Below are positions 1,812 through 26,400 of a DNA stretch of 64,000 nt, in pieces; the first letter of the stretch is position 1; every line of letters starts with the position of its first letter. Made by a program: the position numbers and the translations under genes. The notes under the pieces are model-generated. The model saw only the letters and a list, made by a program, of their open reading frames with translations. It was not told where the DNA came from and made no database searches. This DNA comes from Panagrolaimus kolymaensis (lineage: Eukaryota > Nematoda > Chromadorea > Rhabditida > Panagrolaimidae), in contig JAJQJQ010000072.1 in NCBI GenBank assembly GCA_028622995.1, positions 558,001 through 622,000 on the forward strand. The letters run 5' to 3'.

Positions 1812-1875
1812 GGGGCCAGCCAGAGCATGCAGCACGATCGCGAAGCGATTGTGCTGCATGCGAAAAGCTGGCCCA
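1812..1875. repeat. GC-rich imperfect hairpin
   Basis: The outer stem is GGGCCAGC paired with GCTGGCCC. The inner stem is GCATGCAGCACGATCGC paired with its complement with one mismatch, around a GAA loop. The two stems are separated by short unpaired 4-5 nt segments. The stretch is far richer in G and C than its surroundings, which suggests an inserted sequence. Confidence 0.7.
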
Positions 1876-2893: not shown

Positions 2894-3069
2894 ATATAAG
2901 ACGCCGATATTTAAAAAGTTTTAGGACTGTGCTAAATTTCTCACTTTTTTGAAAAAGTGTCTCTTTTGCCATTTTTTTCAATTGATTTTTTTGGCAAAAG
3001 AGACACTTTTTCAAAAAAGTGCGAAATTTAGCACTGTCCTAAAACTTTTTAAATATCGGCGTCTTATAT
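2894..3069. mobile_element. 176-bp near-perfect palindrome (MITE-like)
   Basis: The arms 2894-2970 and 2993-3069 are reverse complements with only one or two differences, around a 22-nt AT loop. The ends read ATATAAGACGCCG and CGGCGTCTTATAT. The terminal TA and the lack of any open frame fit a Tc1/mariner-type palindromic MITE, but the superfamily is not proven. Confidence 0.65.
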
Positions 3070-4732: not shown

Positions 4733-4939
4733 GCTATCAGTTTTATTGATGAGTTTCAAATTCTCCGCCAAACGGCTTTGTCCTAAAGCAATGATAGTAA
4801 ATGCTCGCTTCTTCTTTCTCGTGCTCATTGCTTCACTTCCATCAAACAACTTTTTTATCCTTCATCGTCAAAAACATCATTTTTTAACTAATCATTGTTG
4901 TTCAAGTTCAGCTGCTTTGAATTTTTATCTCAAATCATC

Positions 4940-5623
4940 ATGCAACAACGTTCTATCATCTTCACCTTTTTCCTTGGTTTTGTTCTTGCTGGTGTTCTCT
5001 TGGCTCAAGAAGATAATGGAACTATGAATTCAACGGAATGGGAAGGTGGAATGGATGGTTTCAATTCAACTGATCTATTTGGTGGAGACTTTGGTGGTAA
5101 TGATACTCTCAACTCAACTGACTCATTTGGTAATGAAACTTCCAACTCAACTGATTCTTTTGGATTTGATTATGAAAGCGACAACTCAACTGGATCCTCT
5201 GGAGCTCAAGGCTGTGAACGCAATGCCATCTGCTTCTCTGAAAAAGAATGTGGTGGTGAAGGAAAATGTCTAGGTGCTTTTAATGGAAAGTGCAACTGCA
5301 ATGCCTGCGTCAACTATGCTCCATGTGATGATGATTCTTCATGTGGTGGTCTTAAGAAAGCTTGTATTTCTGGTCGATGTGATTGTGTTGAAGGTAAGGA
5401 ACTTTGAATATTCTTCCATCTTATTAATACTTTGTTTGTTTTAGGTTTCAAAGCCGTTGGTTATGCTCATTTTACCGATGCTTTCACTCATCTTTGTAAC
5501 GTCAAGGAATGCTCTGGTAGTAATGGTGATGATTGTTCTGGTCTTCCTTGCCACTCAGGTCGTTGTACTTGCCCAGCTGAAACTGATGACAGTCTTGTCT
5601 CTAATGTTTTGAACAACTTCTAA
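4940..5623 (+). CDS. Secreted Cys-rich protein with NST glycosylation repeats
   Basis: Two exons, 4940-5393 and 5445-5623, encode 210 residues. The chosen ATG begins MQQRSIIFTFFLGFVLAGVL, a clear signal peptide, with cleavage probably after LLAQ. Residues ~22-85 are acidic and glycine/serine-rich with repeated NST or NDT/NET sequons, often as NSTDSFG, so heavy N-glycosylation is likely. The rest carries many cysteines in CxC and CGG contexts, including CGGEGKC, CNCNAC and CSGLPCHSGRCTC, and probably forms disulfide-bonded small modules. An upstream in-frame extension to 4895 would bury the signal peptide and was not used. The family is not recognised; nematode eggshell or cuticle-associated secreted proteins are one possibility. 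Confidence 0.8.
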
Positions 5624-6098
5624 TTTTTGTATTTTATTGTCATTTAATTAACTAACTTTCTATGTAATAATAAATTTATATTATCTTTTGTTTTTTGTGT
5701 TTTCTTTGAATCGAGATATTCGGGTTCGAGTTGGACATCTTTTGTTGGCAATGATTTCTATTTTACCTTTTAAAAGTAAACATGTCTCGTTTTTCTGAGA
5801 GTATTGCATAACGCCGAATATGGAAAGACGAATTAGGAAACCATCAAATATGGAATCTTTACCATTTTGAGGATTTATAAGTATTCTTTCGAAAACATAC
5901 ATTCTCGTTTGACCCTAAAGAAGGCTTATAAAATATTCTTGCAACGATTTCGCGCAAAGTTATCATTTTTCCCTTTCAACAATTTGGCGCCAAAAATGTT
6001 AAAGCAATATTGCTTCTAAAAATCTAAAATTTCATTCTTCAACTTTTTCTTCTTCTCTTTCAACTTTTCCCTTTCCCTTTTCAACTTTTTTTTCTCCA

Positions 6099-6303
6099 TC
6101 CATATAAAGCGAAGAAAAATAAAAAAATTTCGTGAAGCATTTGAACAAACACCCTTTTTTTTGTAAATTTATTGAAAAATATTCACAAAAAGTAGTGCAC
6201 TGCTTTTTGTACATTTTTTTCAATAAATTTACAAAAAAAGACGTGGTTTGTTGAAATGGTTCTAAAAAACGAAAATTTTTTATATTTCTTCCCTTTATAT
6301 TTA
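6099..6303. repeat. Long imperfect inverted repeat next to the tandem array
   Basis: Arms of about 100 bp (about 6099-6198 and 6206-6303) are reverse complements with scattered mismatches and small gaps. The best-matched core is TTTGTAAATTTATTGAAAAA. The outer end of the left arm is the complement of CTTCGCTTTATATG, which resembles the first unit of the array that follows. Confidence 0.6.
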
Positions 6304-6307
6304 AATT

Positions 6308-6738
6308 CCTTCGCTTTATGCGTTGCTGCCTTACCTTCACATTTATGTGTTGCTGCCTTACCTTCGCTTTATGCGTTGTTGCCTTACCTTCGCTTTATGC
6401 GTTGTTGCCTTACCTTCACATTTATGTGTTGCTGCCTTACCTTCGCTTTATGCGTTGTTGCCTTACCTTCACATTTATGTGTTGCTGCCTTACCTTCACA
6501 TATTTATATGTGTTGTTGCCTTACCTTCACATATTTATATGTGTTGTTGCCTTACCTTCACATTTATGTGTTGCTGCCTTACCTTCGCTTTATGCGTTGT
6601 TGCCTTACCTTCACATTTATGTGTTGCTGCCTTACCTTCGCTTTATGCGTTGTTGCCTTACCTTCACATTTATGTGTTGCTGCCTTACCTTCGCTTTATG
6701 CGTTGTTGCCTTACCTTCACATTTATGTGTTGCTGCCT
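6308..6738 (+). repeat. Minisatellite of 16 units (26, 27 and 31 bp types)
   Basis: Sixteen units each run CCTTC-stem-TTTA-stem-TTG(C/T)TGCCTTA. Type A has CGC/GCG stems (26 bp), type B CACA/TGTG (27 bp) and type C CACATA/TATGTG (31 bp). The order is A B A A B A B C C B A B A B A B. All three forward frames stay open through the array because the unit lacks stop codons, so the apparent long proteins here are artefacts. Confidence 0.85.
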
Positions 6739-7541
6739 TCGGATACACCTGTTAACTGGTGGGGGCGAAAGCCCTTTTCTCCTTCAATGTACAGCCGCCT
6801 TGACGTGGCGAAGGAGCTTAAGTTGTTTTGATCAAATTAATCAAAACAGCAACTAAGAGCTGTATACAATAATTTTTGGAAAGTTTTGCTTCTTAGTAAA
6901 ACAAAAAAAATCTTGACTAAAATCGCATTGAAAGCATTTTGGTAGTTAGTTGTGTGTATTACTAATTTCACTCTTGGGCGGTTTAAAACAAAAATTATCA
7001 GGAGCATATTATATGAAGCTTTTTTTTAGCAAATTTCAATAAAAAATTAGTATTATGTTTTTTAGGTTCCGATGGTTAGGTTAACATTTTTTTTAAATTA
7101 GAAGAAAACAAATAATTCCAAAACAATAAAAGTTCTAATAAAATATAAAACATAAAATTTAATTTCTGGGTAGCTTTTAAAGCAAATATTTTTATTTCGT
7201 CGAAAAGCAAGTTTTTATCCATGACTTTAAATTGCATGTGGATCATCAATGGAGTAATATACACACCTCTGCTGAATGACAAGTGGAATGTACGCTAAAG
7301 CATCGAAATTACCTTACAAAAAAATTTTTGATTCAAGCTTTTTTTGAAACATAAAATCATTCAAATTTCGCGGCATTTGTGTGGCCTTCAGTCCACTGAT
7401 TTTCAGAAGCGATGCAGGTAATAATTTTATTTTTATTTTTAGATTGAAGCTGTATGCTGCGAAGTGCCGACAATCGTTGTTTTATTCCTTTGCACGTAAA
7501 ATATCACGCTTGTAATTGTTTAAAAGAAATCAGAAAGAAGA

Positions 7542-9011
7542 ATGAAGCAAATATATCGACATATTGATAAAGATGGCTCTGGGTTAGTTTTGAATAATTT
7601 TTTGTAATATTCTTCTAATCATTACAAACTTTTAGCGTCGTCAAGCTGATGTGTGAAGAACCAGAAGATATGTGGCATCTTTTCAACATTGTCCGTATTG
7701 GTGATAAAGTTCGTGCAAAAACATTAAGAAAAGTACAAAATGAATCTTCAACTGGTTCCAAAACATCTCAAAGAATTACAATGACTTTAGAAGTTGATAT
7801 CGAAGCTATTGATTTTGATCCAACTGCTTGTGCTCTTCATTTAAAGGGACGAAATACGTTGGAAAATGAACATGTTAAACTTGGAGCTTATCACACTGTG
7901 GACTTGGAAGTTAATCGACCATTTACTTTGAAAAAGCCCATCTGGGATATTATTGATATTCAACGACTTGATGAATCTTTAGATAAATCGAAGAATGCTG
8001 ATGTTGGTGCTGTTATTATGCATGAAGGATTGGCTAATATATGCATACTCACTTCAACTATGACTATTGTGAAAGCTAAAATTGATATGCCTGTTGCAAA
8101 AAAACGCAAAGGATTATCTGGTCAACATGATAAATCTGTGATTAGATTCTTTGATGCTGTTGCTCAAGCTTTTCTTCGTCATGTAAATATGGAAAATATG
8201 AAATGTGTTATTATTGCTAGTCCGGGATTTCTTCGTGACCAATTTTTTGCTCATCTTTTAACTGTTGCTGAAAAAGAGAATAAGAAGTATTCTGGTACTG
8301 ATCGTTCTAAATTTGTTGTTGTTCATTCTTCAAGTGGCTTTAAACACGCTTTAAAAGAAGTATTAGCTGATCCTGCAATAGCTGCTCGTCTTTCTGATAC
8401 TAAAGTTGGTTTTTTATTTTACTGTTTATTCTATTACCACATTTTTAGGCTCTAGCAGAAGTAAAAGCTTTGAATCTATTTATGAAACATCTCAATGCTG
8501 ACTCTTCACGTGCTTTCTATGGTTTCAAGCATGTTTCAATGGCAAACGAAAAAGGTGCTATTGATACTTTGATGGTTTCTGATGCTTTATTCCGTTCACA
8601 AGATATTTCACAACGTCGCCAATATGTTGATCTCATTGAATCTGTTCGTAATCAAGTAAGCTTTTACATAACACGTTTTCTGATGCTTTTTAAAGTTACT
8701 AAAATGTGTTTAGAAATTACGTTTTTACATTTTAAGGCTTTTTTCTTTAAAAGTAAAACGTCGTTGCTTGTTGAAGATTTGATTTAACTTCTTTCTTTTT
8801 TCAGAGAGGAAATGTGCTAATTTTTTCTAGCATGCATCCTAGCGGCGAACAACTGAATATGATAACGGGCGTTGCAGCTATTTTGCGATTTCCTTTGCCT
8901 GAAATTGAAAATGAAGAAATGGATGATGATGAGGAAATTAAATCTTTGGAGAACCTTGATCGTGCTTTAGAAGAAGTTCATATCGATGATGACGAACCAT
9001 TTGACGGATAA
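7542..9011 (+). CDS. pelo: Protein pelota homologue (ribosome rescue factor Dom34)
   Basis: Four exons, 7542-7582, 7636-8404, 8449-8655 and 8805-9011, give a 407-residue protein, slightly longer than the usual ~385. Pelota with HBS1 recognises ribosomes stalled on an mRNA with an empty A site and promotes subunit splitting in no-go and non-stop decay. The start [14 protein letters not shown] aligns with the family N-terminus. Diagnostic stretches are [82 protein letters not shown] and [20 protein letters not shown], covering the Sm-like N domain and both eRF1-like domains. The C-terminus ends in an acidic tail. The short first exon is supported by homology and by phase. The genes on either side are unrelated. 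Confidence 0.96.
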
Positions 9012-12000
9012 AAGTATGTATTGTATGTTATAGTTATTGTATCACAAATAATAAAGAGGTGCTTTTACAAATTTATTGTTATATCTATGTTCTTTTATGT
9101 TGTTGTGTTTTATACCGGTGAATGAAGAGTTTTTATTTATCCTTTTTTGGTTTTGAAGCAAATAGCAACGACGAATCGAAGAATGAAGAAAAAAGAAAAA
9201 CAAAAATTCGTTCGTGTTTCGTTTCACCACCTTTTATAGCAAAAAAAGGTGGGGTTTGAATTTTAAATCAAGCTATAGCTTGCTGCTTGGTGAATAAAAT
9301 CAAATGAACAAAAAAAAAACCCAAACGATGAAAATTGGCCAATTTTATTAGTTTTGGCGGTATTGCTTTTTGATTAAAAATGTTTTAAAGGCGGCTAAAA
9401 ATAAAACAATCTTTTGTTGTTGTTTGCCAGACGAAGAAAGTCTCTCTCTCTCCCTCACTAATTATGTTGGCAAATGATTTTATTACCATGCGGGGTAAAT
9501 TGAATGGCAATGGCAAGCATTTTTTGCAATTGTCTTTCTCATCTCAAAATCATAAGAAGAAAAAAAGACTGTTAAACAAATGGCTAACATCAGCGGAGGT
9601 GGTGGTGTTGGTGGAATTGGATTGAAGGCTAGAAAGAAAGAAACTAGTCAGTAGGAAAAAATAAAATGAAACAAATCCTTGCTTGCGCGTTATCCCATGG
9701 GAGTGATTCTTCTTTTTCTTGTTTTAGCATACATTCATTCACTTGTTGTTGTTGGAATGTAAGCAAGCAAGCAGTATCATTTCTTTTATTTTTTTACATT
9801 TAACTGATATCTTAAATACATATTTTGTTGTTTATTTTTCTTTTCTCTCTATTTTTGAACAAACAAAAATGATACCGATGAGAAAGAAAAATATTAGGAA
9901 AAAAGGTTATCACTTTTTTCAAAATAGGTCTATCAATGTCTACGAAATAATTTTGTTATGTGTGACAAGAAATTAGAAAATTTTTTGCGATCATATGTTG
10001 GTGGTTGTTATTTGTGGTGTGCATCATTCAAGTGGAAGACGATGAAGACAAAAAAGGAAAAATATATTTTTAGCCGCATAAAAAAAAGTTCACATCTTGT
10101 TTTTCGCGCGCATTAAAGAATTTGTTGCAAATAATAGAAGGAGTGTTGCTGCTTGCTGATGTTGAGATTTTCTCCTTTCCTTTTTTTCTAAACTAAATAC
10201 ATCGACACAAATGGTCACTCGAATAAAAAAATTGTGGGTTGAAGAAACAAAAAAAAGAAAAGGGATTGGAATTAAGGCGGAAAAGGAACTAACTCACGCC
10301 CAACTTACCTTTGCCCTTTTTTCTTTATCCTAATTTGGCTTTAAATAATTTTACCCCCAATTATTTGTTCCAATTATTTTTGATGGTGGTTCCAAAGAAA
10401 AACCATTGTTAAATAATTTCACTGTTATTTGTCCTCTTTTTTCCCTTAAGCAAACCAGTTGATTAAACAAGCTTTTTTGTTTTTAGAGAAGAGGAGCTAC
10501 TCCTCTAGCCTGCATTTTTTTTCTTTAACATCTGTATCAAATATAATAATAAATAATATGGCCTGAGAAAATACGTGTTGTAAAAAAAATATTTTCCCTC
10601 TCTTTTCTGCCACAACATCTAATGTATTTATTTTTCCATCCCCAAATAAAAAATTATGTAAATAATTATTTTGCATATGGAAGTTTATATTTATTTATTT
10701 TTAAAACTTCAGCATGTTCGATAAAAATGAATTTATTTTTCTCATTTATAAATATTCAATATACTTACATATACATATACATTTTATCCTTAAATACATA
10801 TACACTAAATTTAAATATTATACTTTTTTTCACTCATTTTCTCCTTACTTTTTTTTCTTGCTCTATTTTAGAGTAAAAAAAGCCAAAGAATGAGTTGTGA
10901 CATTTTCATTTATTCCATGTTTGTTGTTTGTTGTATTTTCACCCACCGTTGCTAAGTGTATTTCTCTCAAAGTTGTCTTCCTCGTCGTGTTGATAAGAGT
11001 CTTCCTTCCTTCATTTTTTTATTTTTGAGTTGTTTGAATGATGATTTTTTGTGCTTATCAAAAAGTTAATTCTTATAATCTTTTTTTGACACCATCATCG
11101 GTTATATTTTTTTCTCTCCCAACTAATCAATGCTTAATTTTTATTCTAAATCACTGTTTTTTTTAATGCGGATCAGGGGTGAGCGGAATTCCGTTTCCGT
11201 TTCCGTGGAATTCCGTGGAATTCCGTGGTTTTTTTACTTCCGTTTCCGTTTCTGCTTCCGTAAAAAAAAAATTTAAATTTCCGCTTCCGTTTCCGCTTCC
11301 GCGTAAGCTTAAAAAAAGAAAATTCTAATACAAAATTTCCGTTCCGTTTCCGTTTCCGCGGAATTCCGGGCATTTTCAATTTCCGTTTCCGCTTCCGCCG
11401 AACTTCCTCGGTTCCGTTTCCGGTTCCTTCCGTTTAAGGAAAAGCCACTTCCGCTCACCCCTGATGAGATACACCCAAACACAGTAGCCATTCGTTTTTT
11501 TTTGCCCTTCCTAATTTTATTACTTTTGAAAGATTCCTGTTCTTCCCTTATTTTTCTTACTTGTAATTTTTATGTATCTTTTTCTTCATGCCTTTTGGGT
11601 TTTTTTTAAAATTATATTTGTACAAAAAAACTTTTTTACTTTTAAATTTAAAAAAAATAAAACTATTATTGACCAATAAAAAAAGAAGAGTTTTGTATAA
11701 ATAATTCTCCTCCGATACACATTTTTATATAATTTCCTTTTCTTAAATTGGTTTCTTTTTAACCAAATTTGAATGCGTTTTTTTGAAATTGAAATTTTAT
11801 TGAAAAATTGAAAGAACACGAGTTTGAAAATAGTCACGAACGGAGGAATGAAGAAGAAAAGATGAAATTAAAGTTTCAGGTTTACGTATCCATCTTTTAA
11901 GGCTGAATATGCATTTTGTAATTTTGATTTAAAAGAATGAAAAAATTATGCAATAGTTTAATTTTTAAAAAATAAGCATTTTTGTTATAATTTCCATTTT

Positions 12001-12515
12001 TGGCCTATTTTGATTATTATATGTTTGATTACTTTAGCACTAAAAAAAATGATACACTTTTTTTTCTTTCTCCTTTTTTTGCTCACAGCTACAATACAAT
12101 GTTTGTTTTCACAAACAATGAATAATCAAAATTCATAATATTTTTTTTCCCATTCGATAAAAATTATTTTTAAATGCCAAAATATTTTAAACTTTTTCTT
12201 GTTTTTTTTTTTCATTTTCACTTTACATTTAGTCGTTTTGATCACAAGCTTGCATCTCTTGTGTCTAGTCTCTTTTTCTAAACATTTGGACTTTTCTGAT
12301 TGCTTTGTAATAGGGCTTCTTTTTTCTTTACAATTTTTTTTGTAACAAACACTTTATTATTTTTTATTGAAATCATATTTATTCTTTTTTCTATTTTCAC
12401 TTCATATTTCATGGCGCAACAATTTGTATTTTTTTACAACACGTGCTACTTTATTAAAAAAAATATAAATTGCTCTCTAAAGCCCCTATATTTACTTTTT
12501 AATATTTTTTTTTAG
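9012..12515. other. Intergenic 3.5 kb, low-complexity, one MITE
   Basis: AT-rich with many poly-T runs, and no gene is supported. A hAT-like MITE sits at 11174-11463. The last ~300 bases presumably contain the promoter or 5' leader of the mannosidase gene. Confidence 0.7.
11174..11463. mobile_element. 290-bp hAT-like MITE with TTCCGTTTCCG array
   Basis: The element begins CAGGGGTGAGCGGAA and ends with the exact complement TTCCGCTCACCCCTG. The interior is a run of TTCCG(T/C)TTCCG variants broken by two AT-rich patches. CAGGGGTG ends are typical of hAT-superfamily elements, which make 8-bp target duplications. The flanks here (ATGCGGAT and ATGAGATA) match only in part, so the duplication is not clean. 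Confidence 0.75.
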
Positions 12516-13820
12516 ATGAAAAAATTTTCTATAGTGTTAATTAGTGTTATAGTATTTATATTATTAGTTATTTATAGTGAAGATTTATCAACTGGAACGG
12601 GTTTTTCAAAGGTAATTTATAATAATATCTTACTTTTTGGTTTCCTCTTTTTCATCCATTTTTTCTTTTAAAGGTGCTTTCATATGGTCCACTTGGTCGC
12701 AGCTTATTAAACCATGAAACGAACCATGAGAGGTCATTTTTCAAAGAAATTGACGAAGATGATTTTGAGCCGCTTCCATTACTTACTAATTATGATGTCA
12801 TGGTAACTAAAAAAATAGTATATTGGATTTTTTAATGAATACTTTAGATTTCAAATCATGAAATTTTATACAAATCTTTATTAGCCTCTTTTTCATCTTC
12901 CTCAAAGTTCTTAGAAGAAAAAACACAACAACAGCAACAACATAAAAATATTTCGAGTAGTAGTAGGCTGCCGCCACTTAGGCCTTTAAGTGTTCATGTT
13001 GTTATGCATTCTCATGTTGATCCAGGATGGTTGCAAACATTTGAAGATTATTTTCAACAAAAAGTCAAGTTCATCCTTGATTTAACAGTAAAATATTTGA
13101 ATGAAAATAATGATATGAGATTTATTTGGTCGGAAATGTCTTTTTTGGAACGATGGTGGAGAGATGCAAATGAATCACAAAAGCAAATTATGAAAAAATT
13201 AGTATTAGAAAAAAGATTAGAATTAACTGGAGGTTCATGGGTAATGACGGATGAAGCAACACCATATTTTTGGGCATCAATTGATAATATGGTTGAAGGG
13301 CATACTTTTGTGAAAGAAACTTTTAACGTTACTCCAACAACTTCATGGTCGGTTGATCCATTTGGGCATGGAATGATGATACCTTATTTAAATGCTGAAG
13401 CTGGAATAAATAATATGGTTATTGGAAGATTAAATTCACATTTAAAAGAAGAATTACGGGGAAAAAGCCTTTTAATGTTTAATTGGGCTCAAATTTGGGA
13501 TGAAGTTAGATAATTTTATTTTTCGTCCGTCATTTTTTAAAGACCTTTTAAATTTATTTTAGACTGGAATTCGTTCAACTCCATTAGTGAATGCTTTACC
13601 AAAAACTTATTACACCACGTCAGATTCATGTGGACTTGATTCAAATACTTGTTGTCAATTTGATTTGGGACCTAGTGCTCGATCATATTGCAGCAAAAGA
13701 GCCAATAATGTAAATGATCGAAATGTTGCCCAATATGCAAACAATCTTATAACTCAATATCGAACTTTACAACCATTTTACAAAGCTGATTCATTATTAG
13801 TGGCAGTTGGAGATGATTTT
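12516..13820 (+). CDS. Alpha-mannosidase II-like glycosidase (GH38), truncated at 3' end
   Basis: Exons 12516-12611, 12674-12802, 12848-13504 and 13563-~13820 encode about 380 residues of a Golgi-type GH38 enzyme that trims mannoses from N-glycans. The start ATG follows directly on a TTTTTTTTTAG, a likely spliced-leader acceptor. Residues 4-20 form a signal-anchor membrane segment, expected for a type II Golgi protein, followed by a stem. The catalytic domain begins with HSHVDPGW (~residue 128; zinc-binding His and Asp) and includes WSVDPFGHG (~residue 244; zinc-binding nucleophile Asp). It continues through YYTTSDSCG and CCQFD to VGDDF. After this last motif the similarity stops abruptly and the sequence becomes the opposite strand of a dual oxidase. 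A full enzyme is ~1100 residues, so the rest of the catalytic domain, including the fourth zinc ligand, is missing here. The apparent frame runs on to TAG at 13877 through unrelated sequence. Confidence 0.88.
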
Positions 13821-13821
13821 T

Positions 13822-15866
13822 TCTTTTCAATAATTCTTCATCAGTCCAATCAGGATTTAATTCTTGTAAACGTTTAGCTTGAATATTATGCCATCGATAC
13901 ATAACCAAACCAAAACTTAATAAACCAGGATTTTCATTTACTCGAGAATCTCCCAAAACTTAAATCGATTAAATTAAAACACTTTTATCTTCTTTTTTTG
14001 GAAACTAACTAAAAAGCCTTTCAGGATTCATTAATCGATGCACTTGGGGCGGAGCAGGGTTATTCAATGGAATGTGTTCATTATTTAATGGTGGATATCC
14101 TCTCATTGGTCCTTCTGCAAGGGTTCCATTTTGCCATGATCTCAATTCAGCCACCCATGGTTCTTGGGTGCTATAAATAAAAGAAGCATCAATCCAACTT
14201 GTGCGGTCGTTAACCTAAAGAATTTTTGTTGTTTACTTTTTGACTTATTTATTTTTACAAATATGTCTACCTGTTCACGAGGTGAATTTAATCCATGCCC
14301 AGTATTTTTATCATATTTTGCACGAGAAAATGGTATTTCTGTTTTACCTTCACATTCTTTATCAAAAACTTCATCACATTTAGGTACAGGAATTTTTAAC
14401 ATTTCAAGTGGACAACTATTTTGTGTTGAATGCATTATTTCATATGTCACAACTTGGCCTGTAAGAAATTAGTGATTTTTTAAAAGAGCTCTCTCATGTT
14501 GTGAAAGGAAACGAATGAAATGAGTTTTAAACTTAAAAGAGTGACCTCTTGAAAAAAAATGAAATTACTTTGCCGTCGTCATTTATCTTTTTTTATTTTA
14601 CTTTGAGGAAAAAAAGTTGATTGCGGAATTTTTTTAATTTCAGTTTCGTTTGCATTCAAGAATTTATGTGCAGAATGGAAAACTTTTTTTTTTGCTTGCG
14701 TAGGTGGAATGGAATGTCCAGTTTTTTCCTTCCTCGATTCTATCAAAAAAAAATTTGCTGTCGCAGTTGCATCCAAATAAAATGTGACGGTGAAGCAAAT
14801 AAAAGAAAAATTTTCTCACTTCCAAAAAATAAATATTTAACTCAGAGAAAGAAAATAAAAGAAAATAAGAAAAATGAATAAATGAAAAAAAGAAACTCAC
14901 TGAAGAATGCTAACATAGTCGTTAAATTTCGTTGTGATGGTATGCCTGATTGACCTTTGAAAACCAAATCTATAATCAAAATAAAGGAGGTCAAAAAAGA
15001 GTTTAACAAAGGATTAAAATGGGTTTAATTTACCAGAGATAACACGAGCAGATGGAAGATTAGTTGGAAGTTGATAAACACCATCTTGATAATTACTTGG
15101 TGCATCCCGATGAAGTCTACTTCCAACACTGCCCCATTGAGGATTAGCCAAATTATTAAACCATCCGTCATAACGTTGGAATTCATGAATTCTGTCTAAT
15201 GCTAAAACAAAAAAACTAATTAAATTTTGCCTTTTTGTGATTCATTTCAGCCGCCTCCAAAATTAAAAAACGCGAAAGCTTTTTCATTTTAAAAATTCTT
15301 TTTTTTCTTTGTATTTTATTTATTTATTTGTTGCAAAAAACCCTCTTTCAAATATGTCTATGATTATTATTGACAAATTGCAAAATGAAAAGAAAAAAAT
15401 GTAAGTAAGTATCTTTTTTTGTGAGGTACAACAATCAACCTAACAACGCCCATGTGCTTTGATAAAAAAGAAACGTTTCTTTTGTAAAAAAAAAAGAGTA
15501 AAAAAGTTTTTTTTTTCAAGTACTTCAATGGAATTTTTTGTTATTTAAAAGATCTTTAAAAAAAGGGCTGCTGCCAATAAAATTCGAATAAAAATTATGT
15601 AAAGGTAAGAGAAAAAAACAATGAAATAAATAGTGAAGTCAAAACCAGTATAAAAATTTTTTTTGAAAGAAAAACTACACACGTAATTTCCAAACAAACA
15701 GTAAAAAAAAACCTGTTTATGGTCATTTAAATCTAACTAACCCTATAATAAACTTGTTAAAAGTAAGTTCATAAAAAGCCGTAAAAAAATGAGGTTAAAG
15801 AAAAAAAGTGGCTTACCTGAAGCAAAAGTGACCAAAAATGAAACAATAAAAAGTAAAATAATTCAT
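13822..15866 (-). CDS. bli-3: Dual oxidase (BLI-3/DUOX-like) N-terminal peroxidase region, truncated at 3' end
   Basis: Exons in transcript order are 15866-15817, 15201-15034 (or starting at 15191), 14969-14901, 14458-14271, 14214-14010 and 13958-~13822, about 265 residues. Recognisable stretches are EFQRYDGWFNNLA, GSRLHRDAPSNY, DGVYQLP, IPVPKCDEVFDKECEGKTE, NDRTSWIDASFIYST, PLNN, PPQVHRLMNPERLF, LGDSRVNENPGLLSFG and DWTDEELL. They follow the animal haem-peroxidase-like domain of nematode dual oxidases, which make peroxide for cuticle tyrosine cross-linking. A complete protein has ~1500 residues; everything after DWTDEELL (the rest of the peroxidase domain, EF-hands, ferric reductase) is lost at the junction with the mannosidase gene. 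The first exon is uncertain: ATG 15866 gives a hydrophobic leader that is in frame only with the 15191 acceptor. The 442-bp and 615-bp introns hold nothing else recognisable. Confidence 0.88.
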
Positions 15867-18800
15867 TTTGATTTAATATCATCATCAAAACGACGACGTC
15901 GGCGCTGCATGAAGAAGCTCCGATAAAGCGTTTTGGAGCTAAAGAAATTTTTAAGTTCTAAAAAAAGTTTTAAAAAATAAGGATGATGCCAAATAAGATT
16001 TCTCAATATGGAAAAAATAAATCAATGTAAAGCGCGATTACATACAACAACTCTCTGTAGGAGATGATGGGTTTTGGGGAAAAGAATAACGCGTTTCAAA
16101 TAAAAAAGAAACACAAAGGCAAGAAGCTCCTTCGTCTTCAATTGATAGTAGTAGAATTGCTCGTCACAAAGAACAAAAAGAAAAACCGCAAAAAACAGGC
16201 CAGTCGCAAACAATATAATGCGCAATATTTGAAGAAGTAATATTGGAAGAAAAAAAATATAAAGAAACAGGGCCATAAGCATTTCCATATTTATGAAACA
16301 ATAAAAAGACCTAAGCTAATGTCAAAAAACCGCGAACATAATAGTTACGGTATGAATTAAATTTCTTTTATCATCGGTTTCTAAGAGCCAATAAAAAACT
16401 AAAAAATGATTAAATTGTAAAAAAAATTAAGCTTGCTTGTTGAATCAAACAGAAGCCAAAAAAACCTTTTTTTCTTGAAATGGTTTTTCATTGAGAGACA
16501 GTCTTTTAAGAATCAAAGACATTTTATTCTAAACTCGCCCGCCTATTTCCGAGACGACAGACAAACGAAAGAAAAAAATTGTATTAATCGCGCAAGACAT
16601 TTTTTAAAATAGGTGATCAGGCCAATAAAAAAAGTCAAACCAGTAGGATTCAGGTTACATGGATTGCTTTAAAACAAATTAATTAGGTTAATAATAAAAT
16701 AATAATAATCATAATTTGCACTTTCCCAAAAAGCAATAAAAAAAAATTTTAAGTAAGAAAAAAATCAAAAAAATTAATAATTAGTTTGATTGACTTGAAA
16801 ATTTTTTAAAATAATAAGTTTTATTTATTACAGCAGAAAAAAGTGAAACAAATAATTATGTAAAAAAGAAAAGGTTTGACAATAGAAGATGAAGAACGTC
16901 GAAAGCAAAATGAGGTGAATTGAGGTCGGACGATAGAGAGAAACTATGTATTTTATATTTCTTCATCCAGAAAAAAAAGAATCGAAAAAAAAGAAACCAA
17001 GCCGCCAGAGGCATCACCATATATTTATCCTCGTTAAATTAGATTATAAAAACGTCAAGAATTTTTTATTTGAGGACATTTGCAAAGGAAAGGGAGTCAA
17101 AACTTGAACTCGCGAACCCATTTTGTGGTCTTTATAAAAAGTAACAAGCACAGGAAGGAATAACAGTGACAAAAAAATCAAAAGAAACAAAATTCTTAAA
17201 TTTTTTACTTTTTTTACCTGATTGCATACATATTTTGGATTATTGATCTTGCACATGACGTTGACGGAAACTAAAAAAGAAAAGTTCAAAAGAAAATTTT
17301 TTAAATTTTTTTTAACTTTGATATTTATTTTTCCAAACTCAAGTGAAATCCTCCTCACTCTTTAGGTAAAACTCCATTATGATATTACGTACATACAAAA
17401 TGAAAAAATAAGTTAAGTGGAAAGCTTGTTTAAATATTAACTATCATGACAGTATAAAAAAATCAAAAGTAAATAAGAACAAAAAATAATTGACATAATA
17501 GCTAAAGGGTAAATAATAACAATAAACTTATATACACTTTAGAAAAGTAAATTCTTCGAGGTCAAACTTTCTCAACTTTTGTACGTTGGAAGCAAGCAAA
17601 AGAAAATAGGAACACGACAGCTAAGAAAGTTTATGGTAAAGAAAAAAATGCATAATGAAAGTATGTAGTTTTTTATTAACTTCATTGTGAAACCAAAAAA
17701 AACACATACATATTTTCAGACGACCGATCGCTTGTGGTTCAGCTGTTCACTGATTTTTTTTTTTTGCTTTTTTGGAAACCAAACCAGAATTGCCAGTTAA
17801 AAAGGCTTTCAAAAAAGAATTAAAAAAGAAAATATAAAGAGAAATTCCACACGCAAAACAACGCCGCCGCGAGTGAATTTATTTTTTTATATTTGGATGC
17901 ATGCAAAACTCCTCAATCAATGATGTTGCGCAGAAAATCAACCAAACCCCTTTCCTTTGATCGCCTAAAGAAAAAGAGAAGGTGAAATCGTCAGAGGCGA
18001 GATTGGCGCGACGACATTCTCTTTCATTATTTTCACCGAAAAACAAAACAAAAAAGATGCGTGTTTAATGATTTTTGAAATTATTTTTAAGATTTAAAAT
18101 CAGTGAAGTTGAAGATGTTTAAATCAAAGTTCCAGAAATGACAAAAAATGGCTGACATTCAATGATATCAGCCACAAGCGGTGTTATCATTCATCGATTT
18201 AATTAATGATCTTCGAAAAATGTTGTAAATAACAGACATCAGAAAAGGTTTAAAAATATATTGAAAATAATGCTACATAAAACCTTGACATTTGCTTGGA
18301 TAGAAAAAAAATAGAGTGTCTTTGCGCCACCACCGAGAATGGTTTGTTTTGTAAGGCGAAGATGCTTATCATTCACAAATGGTCGCGTAAGTGAGTCAGA
18401 AATACATAATATTCTCGTGAGTTTTCATACTGAGAAGAAAATCAGATTTTGTTTGATAGCAAAAAAAGTGGCAGAATAATTTTAACTCTCCAAATTTCTT
18501 TTTCTTAAATAATTTTGAAACAGGCATGCTTTTTTTGCTTCCAAAAATGAAGAATTTAAAAATTAAAAAGCCTCTATTTTAATAATAATAATAAATTAAT
18601 CATACTTCTTTCTGTCAGAAATATGGAGGCGTTTCAAACTTTTTTTGGCCTCTCTTTTGACCTTCATGAATTGACCTTTTGTTTCATAACTTTAATTTCT
18701 GCTGATTTGTTATTTTTTTCTCACTCTTCTGAATCATAGCAACCACAGTAAGGTCAAGCGTTCTCGACACGAAAGTTTTTTTTAGATTTAACTGTAATTC

Positions 18801-19480
18801 ATTTTTATGATATGATTTTTAATTATTTTTATAATTAAATTCATATTTTGGAGGCGATAAGGAAGCGAATGATACCAAGTTACATTACGATTGGTAACAA
18901 TTTGGTCGAAATCCAATCAACTCAACCTTCACTCGAACATCAGATTATCTGTACTTCTCAATTTTTTGAATGGTCTGCAAAATCAAATACCTCGCATCCT
19001 GATGAATATGGTTAACTCGTTTTTTTTCCAAAAAAGTCTGAACATCATACTTAATTATAACATTTTGTCCAAAAAACAGCTGTTTTTCGCCGCTTTTTTG
19101 GCGCCTTCTAGTACTGAATGTTATAATTAAGTATGATGTTCAGACTTTTTTGGAAAAAAAACGAGTTAACCAGGTACATATGGATGCGAGGAATTTGATT
19201 TTGCAGACCATTCAAAAAATTGAGAAGTACAGATAATCTGATGTTCGAGTGAAGGTTGAGTTGATTGGATTTCGATCAAATTGTTGTTAATCGTAATAAA
19301 ACTTGATATCATTACAATCCTTATCACCTTCCAAATACGGTTTTAATTATAAAAAAATTAAAAACATTATCAAATAATGAATTACAATTAAAACTTTAAA
19401 AAAATTATTTCGTTGGGTCTCGACACGGTCAATAATGACCTTATAGTGGATTAAGTTTTTGCAGTTGGTTGTTTGTTTCT
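15867..19480. other. Intergenic 3.6 kb upstream of the dual oxidase
   Basis: AT-rich, without a convincing gene. It contains the fold-back element at 18740-19452. One exon-like 54-bp segment (minus strand, about 17218-17271) has a TTTTTTAG acceptor and CAG-GTAAAA donor but no partner exons that I can support. Confidence 0.6.
18740..19452. mobile_element. ~710-bp fold-back element
   Basis: The inner arms 18900-19064 and 19117-19290 are nearly exact reverse complements around a ~52-nt centre. The complementarity continues outward at lower identity (about 80% by eye) to CCACAGTAAGGTCA on the left and TGACCTTATAGTGG on the right. No coding frame is present. Almost the whole element could form one long hairpin. 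Confidence 0.75.
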
Positions 19481-20995
19481 TTATTGTACAAGTGGAATAC
19501 GTTCTAATAAAAGCGAAAGTTTTTCAAAAACTGCTACTCTATTTTCTCCTAACATTGCATCAACATAATCATCATTGTTGTCTTCCAAAATAATTTTTAA
19601 AAATGATTTCAAATCCTGCAATTTTTCATTTTGATCCGCGTGTTTTGCAAGAGTTGTGTCTCGAAGTTCCTGCAAATATATTTTTATTTTATTTTTTTGT
19701 TAAGAAAGTCCCTAATTAGTAGATTATTGGTTGAAAGCAAAATCATACTTTTTCTCCTTTCAATGTTTCAAGCATTCGCCTAATTGTTTCGTCCTTATCT
19801 TTAATAGATTTTTTGTATTCTGTTATCTCCTTTTTGAGACCATTCAAAATTTCTGCATTTTTCATTGTTTCTTTTATTCGTAGCTTTTCAAAATCTTCCA
19901 ACTGCTTTCTTGTATCTTTTAAAAGCTTCTCAGTCTGAAACTTTTGATTTTATTAATTATGTAAAGCTGTCAAATTTACTTGTTGACTAGCTTTATTGAG
20001 ATGTTCTTCAAGTCGCTTTTTATCATTTTCAAGCATGGAATTATCCTTTTTAATTTGAACCAATTCTTCTGTGGTTTCATTAAGTTTATATTTCGTTGTT
20101 TCAGTTTGAGTTTTATGTTGCATAATTTCTTTGTTTAATTTATTGATTATCTGAAAAAAAGGGAAAAGAAAAGTTTAATCAATTTTTGGTGTCCATGAAA
20201 AATAGCCTGGTTTTAATTGAGAGGGAAAAAAGATAACAAAAAAAGGAAGAGTATTATTACAACTCCACCGTTTTCCATTTCCAAGAGACATAAGCTTACA
20301 TGGTTGTTGGCTTCAATTTGAGCAGCATTTTGTATCCTCAATTCTCTCGCAATTCTTTCTATTTCTGAATCAAACTCTCGCTGAACTTCTTGTCTGACTC
20401 TTTGCTCAGTAACCAAAGCAATTTCCCTCTCTCTTAGTTCTCGTTTATTCATTTTTTCATCTTTTAAAGCCATTTCACGCTTCAATTCTTTCATTTCTTT
20501 TCTCATATCCGCCATTTCAAGTTCCATTTGTTGTTGATTTCCTATTTGAGTCACTACAAACAAAAATTGTTTCAACTTTAGTTTTTTTGTCCGAGAAAAC
20601 TTACTCATTAATAAATTTTCACTTTTCATTCTTTCAAGCTCAAGCTTGAGTTCATCGGTTTCATCTTTGGCTTGTTGTTGAATATTTAAAAGTTTATTCT
20701 TTTGCTGAGTTTCTGTAGATTCTAAAAGTTCTTCAAGCCTTCTAACTTCATAATCTTGAAGTTGCATGGTTTTTTTACAAAATATTAAAACATCTTTAAA
20801 TTCGTGAGTATCAAATTCATGTTTGGATTTGAGGGATTTATGATTTTGGAGGAGAGAATTGAAAGACTTTGGAGTCTGAAAAATGCATTTTAAGGCGGAC
20901 GTAATTTGAAGTAACAAGCTTACTTCATCTTGAACAACATCAGATCGAAATGTTACCATAGCTCGAGATGATTCAAGTTCGGTGGTTTCTGTCAT
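19481..20995 (-). CDS. Coiled-coil protein of unknown function
   Basis: Six exons in transcript order, 20995-20924, 20875-20605, 20553-20300, 20150-19980, 19934-19749 and 19669-19481, encode 380 residues. All junctions are in phase and use GT-AG introns. After a short N-terminal region, residues ~60 to 320 are almost continuously Glu/Lys/Gln/Leu-rich with heptad character, for example RRLEELLES, ELKLELERM and MRKEMKELKREMALKD. The C-terminal ~60 residues (from ELRDTTLAKHAD) look globular and end LLLERIPLVQ. There is no membrane segment or signal peptide. A cytoskeletal or centrosomal scaffold role would fit, but no family was recognised. Introns 1 and 2 are 48 and 51 bp and have no stop in frame, so their retention would lengthen rather than end the protein. 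Confidence 0.85.
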
Positions 20996-21327
20996 AATTT
21001 TTATTTCATAGAAAAAAATTTATGAATTGGAAGCAAAGTAAATTGTCATTTTTTTTGTTAAAACCTTTGCTTCAAAAATTCCAAATTTTGTCGTATATTT
21101 TTTTTCTATTGCTTGAATGAACAAAATTTTTTAATCGATGCTTAATTTTTTATTTTCAACATTCCTTCTTTTTTTCTGTTAAAATTTTTTATTGAACTTT
21201 TATAAAAAGCACCCATAAACAAAAATAAAAACATTGTGTGTGTCAGCGATACTAAAGTAAATTTTTGTTTCAACAACATTTAAAAAATAAATATCCTTTT
21301 TTTTTTCTTCATAATCCCAAGGTTTTT
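20996..21327. other. Intergenic
   Basis: Spacer between two minus-strand genes. Apart from AT-rich sequence I see nothing in it. Confidence 0.6.
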
Positions 21328-21708
21328 TTAAAAATGACATTTGCCACATGTGTATTGGCAACCGGACATGCAATTAGCATAATATGTATTATTACAATAT
21401 CCAACGTAAAGATAACAATCATAACATGTATCACGACAAGCACCTAAATAAAATTAAAAGAGTAAAATAGAAGTAATGTAGCAAAGATAAACACTTACAG
21501 CACATTCCATTTTGGCACATTCTTGATGTTGGGCAATTGTCATTTATGCAAGCTTTAAAAATTGGAATTTGAATTTTAGGGTTTGAATTTCTCAACAATA
21601 GGAAAACTTACGTCCAGTTGAAGCCATACCATCGCAACAAATTTGTGAATAAACAAATGGAAGCACAGCTAAAGCTAAAATAAAACAAATAAATGCTGCG
21701 GATTTCAT
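21328..21708 (-). CDS. Small secreted Cys-rich peptide
   Basis: Three exons in transcript order, 21708-21612, 21552-21499 and 21443-21328, encode 88 residues. The N-terminus MKSAAFICFILALAVLPFVYS is a signal peptide, with the mature peptide starting near QICCDGM. The mature part (about 67 residues) has 14 cysteines, including CC, CQNGMCCAC, CYDC and CQYTCGKC. It therefore probably folds through many disulfides, like nematode defence or cuticle peptides, but it does not match the spacing of a family I know. A TATAAAA at 21758-21764 lies about 50 bp upstream of the ATG. The gene lies between the coiled-coil and F-box-like genes and reads in the same direction. Confidence 0.82.
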
Positions 21709-21757
21709 CCTTGCAGGATGTTTTTAAAATAATTTAAATGTCAAAGTTCACCGATGC

Positions 21758-21764
21758 TTTTATA
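21758..21764 (-). promoter_or_regulatory. TATA box of the Cys-rich peptide gene
   Basis: TATAAAA on the minus strand (TTTTATA as shown), about 50 bp before the start codon of the secreted Cys-rich peptide. Spacing suits a short leader. Confidence 0.6.
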
Positions 21765-22006
21765 CTCAACTTTAATTAATACAAAAAAAGATAATGAAAT
21801 GATAATTTATTCAACAAAAATATTTTTTGAACGTTTGAAATTTAAAAAAAGGCGTGTTTAATTAGCTGCTGAAATCAAAAACAAACATGGAGAGAAAAAA
21901 TGAAATTTTGAAAGTTTAAAAATTTTAACTTTACTGAGTGTAAGTAAACTGGATGATAAATAATAAATTTATTCAAAAAAACATAAAAAAGACAAAGAGA
22001 CAAAAC

Positions 22007-22797
22007 TTAATATTTTAAAATTTTAAAACCATTTAACATTGAAATTTTGATACCATGAGTATCAATAATTTTGTCTTGCTTAAGAAATTTAATCGCTTCA
22101 AACAAAAAATTAAAACCATTATTAGCGAAATGTAATGAAGAAGTTGAATGGTATAAAAGGAAACTAAAAAATGTGGTGATTTTTATTTTTCCAAAAAAAT
22201 ATGAGGAACTTACTCAACATTATCAAGCTTTAATATAAATTTAATAAATTCCAGAAATTCTTTCATTGGGCAGTTTGATCGAATACCGCCTTCAAATGTA
22301 AAAATTTTCAATCTTGGATTTATCAATGTTTTTAATGCATCAAAATCAATGCAAAATACATCGAGTTCAAGTCGTTTGTATGAATTAAAAGTAATTGGTA
22401 AATGTTGAATAAATTTATCGGTAATCATTTCTTCATTCATTCGAAATATTGTTATAGTATCCATAACATCCATTTTATTTTTTAAATCAGCCATACCTTT
22501 TTCTCCATTGCATAATTCATTTTCATTACAATAACATAAAGCAGAAAATGTGCATGAAGAATTATCAATATCGATTACTGCTTTCTCAATTGTATGACGT
22601 CGTTTTGCGAGTAGTCGGGTTACTTCTTTGATTAGAGCAAACGACTTTAAGGTTTTTGGATCACATATTTCAGCGAATCGCTTTTGACAAACCCATGGAA
22701 GCGAAATGAAATCGAATGTTGCAGCTGATGACTCTGAAGATAATTTTAAATCCTTAAAATTTGATTCAATGATGTTAATCACATTTGGACCAGACAT
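22007..22797 (-). CDS. F-box-like Cys-motif protein, paralogue 1
   Basis: Two exons, 22797-22214 and 22163-22007, encode 246 residues. An N-terminal F-box-like stretch (residues ~28-60) reads TFDFISLPWVCQKRFAEICD then PKTLKSFALI. It is followed by a C-x5-C-x-C-x5-C motif (SSCTFSALCYCNENELCNG), and then by leucine-rich segments such as LELDVFCIDFDALKTLINP and FEGGIRSNC. The same layout and the same single phase-2 intron near the C-terminus occur in three other genes in this window (44732, 49530 and 55788). F-box proteins are usually substrate adaptors of SCF ubiquitin ligases; that role is inferred and the F-box is divergent. No signal peptide or membrane segment. Confidence 0.85.
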
Positions 22798-23465
22798 ATT
22801 CGGAAATTAAATTACTGACAGAATAATAGTAATAAAAAAAGAAGTAAATATAGATAGCAAAAGTAACTAAACTTGAGAAAGCTTGGATAAAACTTCTTTT
22901 GTTTTCAAATAAAAAAACAACAAAAGAGGGGAAGTAAGTCATTTTAGTATTTTACGAAGACAAAAGGTTTTGTTATTTGTCACAAATTTTAATAGCCTAA
23001 AGCTTCAAATTATTTTTGACGAATAAATAAAAGAAGAAAGCCAAATGGGTGCAAAAGAAATTATAAGACTAATCAATAAGAAGAAGCATAACCACCAATA
23101 AATGAAAAACAAAAGAGTTTTTCTTATCGAAAAAAATTGAAGAAAGAAAAAATGGAGGAAGCACTTTTATTTTATTTTCTTTATTTTCATTCTTTCTTTT
23201 TTGCTTTCAAAAAATGTGAAAGTTAAAAAATTTTAAATTCCAATTGTTTTATAGCAAAATAAAGTTTTTTGGGGTATGCATTTATTTGATTAAAATTTAC
23301 TTGGCAATACAAAAATAATTTGAAATAACAGGGTTCAAATTATATGAAGAAAAAAAGTGCCGAAAAAAAAAGTACAAATTTATGAAAATTATTTTTTTGT
23401 TTTTCTTTTTTTAATGAATCACATATCCATGGAAGGAATGGATTGGAAGAAGCATGGAAGACCAT
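22798..23465. other. Intergenic
   Basis: AT-rich spacer between the F-box-like gene promoter side and the vitellogenin 3' end. Nothing else recognised. Confidence 0.6.
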
Positions 23466-26400
23466 TTAAAGGTACTTCATTTCTTGATCGTCATTGCCAG
23501 TGGTGCCACGACGACGGGAAGATGAAGTGTTGTTGACAACGCATTTGATTGAAAGATTTTGGGGGATGGTTTCTTGATTTCCCATGTCGTCTTCAACTTC
23601 AATGGTTTCACCTTTGTTAACAAGGCGAAGGAATTTCTTGGTTTTATTTTGGCTTCGCTTCATACAAATGAAATCAACGTCCTTGTTTTCTTTGCGGCCT
23701 TCTTTTTGGGAACCTTCTGGGCATTTGACGGGATTTTTGGAGAAGCAAATGCGATTGCGATATTCAACAACGAGGGTTTTTTCAAGGTTTTCTAAAAAAA
23801 GAAAGAAAGTTTAAAAAAAGTCAAAGAAAAAATATAAGTTATAAAATTACCTTTGTTTTCTTGATCATTAGTTACATCATTTTCTTCTTCAACATCCATG
23901 CTGTATTCTTCATTTTGCTTTTCTTCGCTTGAATCTTTTTTAACTTGTTCAACAGCTGTTGGGTCACATTCAGCATCGCGATAAAGATAGCTTTGATGGA
24001 AATCTCGAAGGCTGGTAGCTTCTTCATTATCAGGTTTTCGAAGATCATCAGTTACATCACCGTTGTAATGTCCACAAATTCCGCATTGACGATTAAGATA
24101 TTGACCTCCAATGGTGATTTTAACATTTAATCCATCGAAGCGAACGGTGATACCAGTTTTAGGGCAACGAATTTCAACAATTTCATCTCTTCCGCCAACT
24201 TTGTAAATTCCATGTTGTTCATAATCAACTTCATCAACGAGATAATTATTTACTTTGACAACCAATTTATTGGTGTGCTTGGTAATTTCATAAATCTTTT
24301 CTTGATTAACCATTTTGAGTTTGAGTTCATCGAGATATGCAACGGATTTTTTGGCCATAACAACAAAGGTGGAATCTTCGACGCAATCTTTTGCGAGAAT
24401 GGTGTAGCACATGTTCAATGGAAGTTTAAAGGTTTTTCCATCGAAAGTTCGAACCATTTGTCCTTTCTTGATGGAACATTCAGCATCATCATTACTGGAT
24501 CGGCGGAGGACATCATAAATGCTTCGAGCTTTGGATTCTCCATTACCGCGACGAGGAACAAGAACATCATCTAAATCCAATTCAAGTTGATGTTGTTTAT
24601 TGGGCATTGAAATAGTCATGTTGTAATTGTTTTCATCAAGGGTTAAACGGGTCATCAAAGTTTGGGAGCGTTTGCTGGTTTCTTTTTCAATGAGTTCACG
24701 TTCAGGCATGGAAACAAATGAAGCAAAGCTGAGATAATTGTAGAAAGTATGCATGTGGCGGGTCCATTGAGGTGATAATTTATTTTCAAAGATCATGATA
24801 TAATCATTGGGTTTCAAAATTTGTGGGGCATTTTCATAAACCATGCTATTGCTGCGAACATTTTCACGATCATTCAAAAGAAGTTTGAGGGATTCAATTT
24901 TTTCAGCTGATGGTCGACCATAAAAATTGACGATGATTTGATTTTTATCATTGCCACCAAATCCAGCATCAACTTTAGCGATGATATGACGGGATGAAAA
25001 ACCAGAAACTACTCCGCGAAGTTCAGGCATAGCAAGATGGGCAATGCTTTTGAAGGTCCATTTTGAGTCAACGTCCATTTCGTGGTTGATAACACAAAGG
25101 ATCATATCTTTATCACAGACTGAATTGAGAGTGATTTTAGCGGTATGTGGGCGAACACCTTTGACAGCTTCAGCTTTGATGGAGAAATGCGAAAGATGAT
25201 CAAGTTTTCCAGCAGCACGTTGAACTTGTTCTTTAATTAATTTTTGTTCATCGCGTTCAGTATTGGCAAACATTTGATTGTTGTGAATTCCGAAAAGGGT
25301 TTGGAAATCAGGAAGATCAACATCGCGGACATCTTTGGTGACTTTCATATGGCCATTGACGGTGAGCTTAAGGGATTTGGCAGAATCAGCAGTTGGTTGG
25401 ATTTTAAGTTCAAATGCATTTTCTCCAGAAAGTAACCAATCTCCAAGGAGTTTTTGGCTAACGGAAAGAGGACTTGCATGCCAATGAGCATCGATGTTAA
25501 TGTTCATTCCAACGAAAGCATCAACATGATTGATTCGTTTTTGATGAAGTGGACCAGTAACATCATCGATGATAAGAGTTTTTTCGGCGGCTTCAATGAA
25601 GACTCCACTCTTTTCAGGCCAAACTCGATAGAAAGTGACAGGGCGTGTTTGAAGATGTATAAGACGGACTTCTTCAGTGGGCATATGAAGTTCAATTTCA
25701 GGTAACCAATGTGGAGCTTTAACTTTAGCAACCATGTTAAGAGGTAAGCGAAGTTGAGCAGAATGGAAAGTTTTTACACCAGATGTAAATAATGGAGAGA
25801 ACATTTCCATTTTGACGATAACAGTGGTAGCAATTTTGGGTTCAACTTTGAGGTGGATTCGGGCATTTTTGAGACGATCTTCATTTTCTTTTTCATTGAA
25901 GCTGGTGGAAATGCTGCCATCAATAACGGCAATGGTGGGGATTCGAATGGTTGTGAGAAGAGGGATGCCACAGATGGTTGGAGTTTTGATTTGTTGTTCA
26001 TAACCATATGAAGCTGAAGCCCAATTGAATTTCATATTTTTTAATTCCCAATTTGAAACATCAACTTTTCCATCAACGATGAAAGATTGAAGAAGTTGTG
26101 GAAGAGAATCTTCATCAGTGAGGCAGAAGATGGTATCCATATTTTGCCAGCGAGAATAAAGCAAGATCATTGGATTTGCAGTTTCAGTGGAAACACGACG
26201 AGTGGCAATCTTCAAGCGGTTGTAAATATTCTTGAGGAAAATCATTGGATTGTATTCATCGATGACGGAACGACGATCACGAACCATAAGATCATCAAAG
26301 TTTTTGGATTCCCATGATTGATATAAACGTTCAAGAAGTTGTTCTAAATCTTGAGTGTGCATGCCAACTTGATAAGTATTTGGAGTGACACGTTTATTTG

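What the first reader, a model, noticed from the sequence alone, without database searches (positions are those of the whole stretch)
13563..14010. Alpha-mannosidase II and dual oxidase genes are cut and joined head-on inside both catalytic domains
On the plus strand a GH38 mannosidase reads normally to the conserved GDDF motif ending at 13820. On the minus strand a BLI-3-like dual oxidase reads normally to DWTDEELL, whose codons end near 13832. Neither gene continues in the window, and the ~10 bases between are T/C-rich. Two unrelated genes losing their 3' halves at exactly the same point, in opposite orientation, is what an inversion breakpoint or a chimeric contig would produce. If real, it would remove a Golgi glycosidase and a cuticle cross-linking enzyme at one stroke, unless intact copies exist elsewhere.
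Basis: partly seen in the sequence, partly recalled or inferred. Interest (0 to 1): 0.75.

Follow-up and report, generated by a model that had tools for sequence, protein, structure and literature searches.

The report
Ectopic duplicate with two truncated genes
In what is probably the triploid permafrost nematode Panagrolaimus kolymaensis, two neighbouring genes look fused head-on because this is a spare copy of their block, set into another genome region with about 7.4 kb missing from its middle; counterparts of all their exons remain elsewhere, so the case is tidy but ordinary in kind.

Summary
The head-on join is present in the assembly, exactly between 13828 and 13829. It needs no inversion. 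In three homoeologous contigs (C9, C17, C2) the GH38 mannosidase and the dual oxidase are convergent neighbours; the window lacks the 7,437 bp that C9 has between the two points, so a deletion removed both 3' halves, joined without microhomology or inserted bases. The copy is not at the native place either: window 131-18743 is a fourth copy of the C9-type block (at least 99% identical to C9 in 28 of 33 bins of 500 bp) inside a locus where C3 and C5 carry about 1.9 kb instead, and its right end abuts a 705-bp palindromic element. Right of the join a 1.1-kb tract differs by 6-8% from C9, C17 and C2, so the copy is a mosaic. Neither enzyme need be lost: C9, C17 and C2 have counterparts of all 18 exon pieces tested. 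Assembly numbers match triploid, HiFi-sequenced P. kolymaensis. Private features argue against a chimeric contig, but no reads were available.

The parts
13828..13829 (.). Head-on junction (deletion point): mannosidase up to 13828, dual oxidase (antisense) from 13829; no microhomology, no inserted base
   Evidence: Comparison with both breakpoints in C9, C17 and C2 and the right one in C61; BLAST split at query 266/267. C9 has 7,437 bp between the points (2966100-2973536), C17 7,462, C2 7,454 (from coordinates)
12516..13877 (+). 5' half of a Golgi alpha-mannosidase II-like (GH38) gene; the frame reads 15 codons past the codon at the join and stops at 13875-13877. Start codon at 12516 and the first exons are my reading
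   Evidence: Pfam PF01074, mannosidase II structures, frame
13829..15241 (-). 5' part of a dual oxidase gene (peroxidase-like region; further 5' exons probably continue to about 15.9 kb); the frame reads 26 codons past the codon at the join and stops at 13747-13749
   Evidence: Pfam PF03098 pieces, dual oxidase 1 structures, frame
131..18743 (.). Ectopic block: extra copy of the C9:2961186-2983933 region, minus the 7.4 kb and plus two insertions
   Evidence: Homology to C9, C17 and C2 covers 131-18743 only; identity bins
13829..14941 (.). Mosaic tract directly right of the junction, 6-8% different from C9, C17 and C2
   Evidence: 61 of 1114 (BLAST) or 75 of 1106 (MAFFT) differences to C9; Fisher p 1.6e-22 against 14951-18000
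18001..18440 (.). Second divergent patch, 4.8% from C9 and 3.9% from C2
18744..19448 (.). 705-bp palindromic (foldback) element between block and host, without target-site duplication
   Evidence: Self-complementary at 33-661, 84.7%; 99% copy in C11, 90% copy in C98
1812..4729 (.). 2.9-kb repeat insertion absent from C9; nine other near-full-length copies at about 100%
   Evidence: 40 of 381 candidates scored
11174..11467 (.). 294-bp insertion with short terminal inverted repeats, absent from C9
7619..9008 (+). Pelota-like gene (eRF1 domains 1-3) carried in the block, apparently open
   Evidence: pieces 97.4-100% identical to C9
1..130 (.). Left host flank (C3/C5-type); contains the end of a host exon and about 11 bases of its likely intron
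19448..24000 (.). Right host flank (C3/C5-type)

Best explanation
The window holds an extra, ectopic and broken copy of a gene block, not a broken native locus. DNA corresponding to C9:2961186-2983933 (22.7 kb, with the convergent mannosidase and dual oxidase genes inside) was copied into the C71 homoeologue of the C3/C5 locus, with about 1.9 kb of target sequence lost and a palindromic element at one end (identity of the block and its edges shown; direction and process inferred). In the copy, 7.4 kb holding both 3' halves is missing and the ends are joined bluntly, which leaves the two 5' halves head-on (shown). Because ancestry changes sharply at the join, the gap probably arose when repair or copying jumped from the C9-type template to another dual oxidase copy and was closed by end joining (inferred). 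Both frames run into short nonsense tails, so the products would lack most of their catalytic domains; most likely they are pseudogenes, tolerated because C9, C17 and C2 keep the genes.
For: Convergent order and 7.4-kb spacing in C9, C17 and C2; blunt join; the missing interval in C9 carries the remaining domains of both genes; a 4-kb probe from inside it has 3 matches, C9, C2 and C17, none in C71; counterparts of 18 of 18 exon pieces in C17 and C2; host flanks match C3 and C5, with 1,874 and 1,893 bp at the empty site; block 99% or more identical to C9 in 28 of 33 bins; private insertions and tract.
Against: No reads were available, so no join is confirmed physically. The source of the tract 13829-14941 is not found in the assembly: covering 13829-14214, lists only C17, C9, C2 and C61 besides the window, all at 92-94%. 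Order of events (copy first or deletion first, template switch or later conversion) is not determined. Dates and expression are unknown. Some in-frame stops appear in C17 and C2 exon pieces; I read them as intronic, from their places, without transcripts.
Confidence: 0.78

Rival explanations
1. Old copy overwritten: the ectopic block is about as old as the homoeologue split; its middle was deleted long ago, and later gene conversion from C9 homogenised most of it, except next to the deletion, where missing homology stops conversion, and near 18 kb.
For: Two divergent islands in an otherwise C9-like block, one starting at the deletion; the island is about equally far from C9, C17 and C2 (6.8, 6.0, 7.7%) as these are from each other (6.1-6.7%).
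Against: Needs several conversion tracts with one ending within tens of bases of the junction; no independent evidence of direction. It agrees with the main explanation on anatomy (ectopic block, deletion) and differs only on history.
Confidence: 0.35
2. Chimeric contig or misassembly: reads from the C9-type region and from the C3/C5-type region were wrongly joined, including the head-on join.
For: No reads examined; three breakpoints in 19 kb; a triploid with diverged haplotypes is hard to assemble.
Against: Host homology resumes in the same order and orientation on the far side of the block with only 1.9 kb missing; block has private insertions and a private tract not held elsewhere; join to right edge is 5.6 kb, within the published mean HiFi read length of 14.4 kb if the organism is P. 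kolymaensis.
Confidence: 0.12
3. Inversion breakpoint inside both genes.
For: The genes meet head-on.
Against: They are convergent neighbours in C9, C17 and C2, so no inversion is needed; the tested 4 kb of the missing interval occurs only in those three contigs.
Confidence: 0.02

Closest known systems
Non-processed pseudogenes made by ectopic segmental duplication with internal deletion (recalled category)
   Same: Introns kept, neighbouring genes copied together, truncated frames, intact parents elsewhere
   Different: Two convergent genes truncated by one blunt deletion; ancestry changes exactly at the join; palindromic element at one edge
Template-switching or end-joining insertions with target-site deletion (recalled category)
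   Same: Joins with no or at most 2 bp of shared bases, sequence from another chromosome region, loss of target sequence
   Different: Mechanism is inferred from sequence only; no time series or reads
Triploid parthenogenetic Panagrolaimus genomes (P. kolymaensis, PS1159; passages of PMC10374039 and PMC10879605)
   Same: Three diverged copies per region and about 265 Mb in total, which gives redundancy for broken copies
   Different: The passages I saw describe ploidy and contiguity, not single rearrangements like this one

Membership tests
Deletion between convergent genes | Both sides lie in the same order and orientation in relatives, with extra sequence between them | tested here: met
   C9 7,437 bp, C17 7,462 bp, C2 7,454 bp
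Inversion breakpoint | One side reversed relative to the ancestral order | tested here: not met
   Both sides match C9, C17 and C2 on the same strand
Ectopic segmental duplication | Block flanked on both sides by sequence of another locus, with an unoccupied site in homoeologues | tested here: met
   C3 and C5 flanks and 1,874 or 1,893 bp at the site
Ordinary transposon insertion (for the palindromic element) | Target-site duplication on both sides | tested here: not met
   Block on the left, host on the right, no repeated bases seen in the window or in the C11 copy; the C98 copy has CAATCC on both sides, read by eye
Functional GH38 mannosidase II gene | Complete catalytic, middle and C-terminal domains | tested here: not met
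   Frame stops at 13875-13877; middle and C-terminal pieces absent from the window
Functional dual oxidase gene | Complete peroxidase-like, EF-hand, ferric reductase, FAD and NAD regions | tested here: not met
   Cut in the peroxidase-like region; later pieces absent from the window
Chimeric contig | No reads span the joins | not testable with these tools
   No reads held

The most novel reading that the evidence does not exclude
The head-on fragment works as a trans-acting antisense locus: a transcript from either truncated gene runs across the join into the antisense of the other, giving double-stranded RNA that matches the complete mannosidase and dual oxidase genes and lowers both in an RNAi-capable genus, so that one blunt deletion would have created a joint dosage control.
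Probability: 0.04. Interest if true: 0.65.

Novelty: new member of a known kind. Interest (0 to 1): 0.28.

Why it matters
It shows that a 'two genes lost at one stroke' signal in a polyploid assembly can be an extra broken copy, and how to tell: find the homoeologues, the empty site and the missing interval. If reads confirm it, it is a well-resolved case of ectopic duplication, blunt deletion and mosaic ancestry in a clonal triploid animal. It also warns that counts of mannosidase II, dual oxidase and Pelota genes in this assembly include partial or extra copies.

Tried and rejected
Inversion: rejected, because the genes are convergent neighbours in C9, C17 and C2.

Missing exons elsewhere in the window: of 18 exon pieces cut from C9, 13 had no match in window 1-24000 at E 1e-6 or in the whole window at E 1e-4.

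Block as an unchanged copy of C9: rejected for 13829-14941 and 18001-18440. Tract derived from C17, C2 or C61: rejected, alleles follow none of them throughout (C61 could be compared only over 13829-14237).

Organism: Meloidogyne was my first guess (also in my notebook note), dropped because the M. enterolobii dual oxidase fragment is 72% identical over 262 aligned positions. P. kolymaensis is inferred from 265.84 Mb and 807 contigs against 266 Mb and 856 contigs, with 49 contigs called mitochondrial (856 - 49 = 807, my arithmetic). The phased PS1159 assembly (264.7 Mb, 876 contigs, N50 559 kb) fits less well, since contigs here reach 12.9 Mb and C17 still has 4.4 Mb. A vitellogenin search listed 5 proteins, the named ones Halicephalobus (52%), P. 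superbus (60%) and Acrobeloides nanus (39%): this fits the family, not a species.

An HSP70-like reading of the host gene (in my note): 254 aa of it had no Pfam match at E 0.01, so not used.

Family search for PF01074 in the genome: not completed, so the total number of GH38 genes was not counted.

Papers: searches listed nothing on this locus; this does not show that it is not in print. PMC10374039 and PMC10879605: passages found by term. PMC2453295: title and start of abstract in a search listing.

Full report
WHAT WAS CLAIMED AND WHAT IS THERE. The identifications hold: PF01074 at 12848-13510 (E 7.6e-54), mannosidase II structures matching 13563-13874 past GDDF, animal haem peroxidase in four minus-strand pieces (one of them below Pfam's cut-off), and dual oxidase 1 the best solved match next to the join. 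The cut is at 13828|13829, not 13820/13832: against C9, the mannosidase runs to 13828 and the dual oxidase begins at 13829.

THE MISSING PIECE. The window is G000:C71:558001-622000 of a 265.8-Mb assembly in 807 contigs. A search with 13563-14214 gave 8 matches: the window itself, three of the mannosidase side alone (C9 100%, C17 96%, C2 94%) and four of the dual oxidase side alone (C17 94%, C9 94%, C2 93%, C61 92%). In C9, C17 and C2 the two sides have the same order and orientation, 7,437, 7,462 and 7,454 bp apart (from the coordinates). The interval in C9 holds the rest of both genes: peroxidase remainder, EF hands, ferric reductase, FAD- and NAD-binding pieces, and the mannosidase middle and C-terminal domains. 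A 4-kb probe from inside it has three matches in the genome, C9, C2 and C17. So the head-on join is a deletion between convergent genes, with no microhomology and no inserted bases.

ARE THE OTHER COPIES COMPLETE? All 18 exon pieces cut from C9 have counterparts in C17 and C2. In-frame stops do occur: in C17 in DUOX_c (2), DUOX_e2 (1), DUOX_i (1) and GH_g (113, 122, and 128 in a second match); in C2 in DUOX_e2 (1), DUOX_j (1) and GH_g (1). The pieces are stop-to-stop frames and include intron or downstream bases; the stops lie at piece ends or where similarity to C9 drops, so I read them as intronic or downstream. Without transcripts I did not resolve every exon edge.

AN ECTOPIC COPY. Homology to C9, C17 and C2 covers window 131-18743, although those three contigs continue to match one another beyond both edges. 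To the left, C71:554001-558000 matches C3 and C5 at 94%, the only other matches listed. From 19449 rightwards the contig matches C5 (96%) and C3 (95%); at 52000-54250 it matches C5 (93%), with no C3 row listed. The host edges are at 130 (C3) or 129 (C5) and at 19448 (C3) or 19470 (C5). Between them C3 has 1,874 bp and C5 1,893 bp that C71 lacks; 254 aa of an open frame there had no Pfam match. The right end of the block touches a 705-bp element that is its own inverted repeat (84.7% over 33-661), with a 99% copy in C11 and a 90% copy in C98. It sits between block and host without a target-site duplication, so I infer that it belongs to the junction rather than to a later ordinary insertion.

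A MOSAIC. In 500-bp bins the block is at least 99% identical to C9 in 28 of 33 bins; the exceptions are 6501-7000 (96.75%, partly in a tandem repeat), the three bins of 13501-15000 and 18001-18500. C17 and C2 range from 88.8 to 99.2%. Directly right of the join, 13829-14941 differs from C9 at 61 of 1,114 bases (BLAST alignment) or 75 of 1,106 (MAFFT), and from C17 and C2 by 5.99 and 7.72%. The next 3 kb differ from C9 at 15 of 3,031 bases (Fisher p 1.6e-22). The tract follows none of C9, C17, C2 or, where comparable, C61. Either copying jumped to a dual oxidase lineage that I did not find elsewhere in the assembly, or an older copy was overwritten from C9 up to the deletion. Both remain open.

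PRIVATE FEATURES. The block carries a 2.9-kb repeat at 1812-4729, of which nine other near-full-length copies at about 100% were listed (40 of 381 candidates scored), and a 294-bp insertion at 11174-11467, both absent from C9. With the tract, these argue that C71 holds a separate locus and not a misplaced piece of C9. This is inference; no reads were available.

CONSEQUENCE. The mannosidase frame continues 15 codons past the codon at the join and stops at 13875-13877; the dual oxidase frame continues 26 codons and stops at 13747-13749. Neither product would have a complete catalytic domain. The block also carries a Pelota-like gene (eRF1 domains 1-3) whose three pieces, cut by eye, are 99.7, 100 and 97.4% identical to C9, the last with a 3-base gap, so the copy may add one intact gene. 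I read the locus as a duplicated, non-processed pseudogene pair next to a possibly working duplicate.

ORGANISM. Assembly size, contig number and three-fold redundancy match P. kolymaensis: 266 Mb, 856 contigs, 49 called mitochondrial, triploid, HiFi reads of mean 14.4 kb, HiCanu (PMC10374039, passages). This is inference from numbers; protein searches support nematodes and, for vitellogenin, the family.

NOVEL READING. Transcripts crossing the join would be antisense to the other gene, and P. superbus is reported to show systemic RNAi (PMC2453295, title and start of abstract). Against it: polyadenylation-like AATAAA strings follow soon on both sides (first at 13919 on plus and 13558 on minus), though such strings are common in this AT-rich DNA, and no expression data were available. 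Probability 0.04.

Noticed in passing
G000:C61:1001714-1006594 (L021, L022, L005): A further partial dual oxidase copy: 4 of 11 dual oxidase pieces match (b, c, d and part of e), no mannosidase piece, no other C9-type matches of 400 bp or more in the fetched 50 kb. Probably another ectopic truncated copy.
   Followed up: partly
window 18744-19448: 705-bp near-perfect palindromic element with related copies on many contigs; its two ends join different loci here, without target-site duplication.
   Followed up: partly
window 1812-4729: 2.9-kb repeat with nine near-identical copies listed elsewhere, which suggests recent activity of an unnamed mobile element.
   Followed up: no
window 54250-55000: Repeat found at about 97-100% identity on many contigs, in the stretch with the strongest GC skew of the window, -0.276 at 54001-56000.
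   Followed up: no
window 120-180: Block edge lies between a likely host splice donor and a donor-gene intron, so a spliced chimeric transcript is conceivable; not tested.
   Followed up: no
window 23798-26704 (minus): Long vitellogenin exon (open beta-sheet and VWD domains); best named relatives only 52-60% identical.
   Followed up: no
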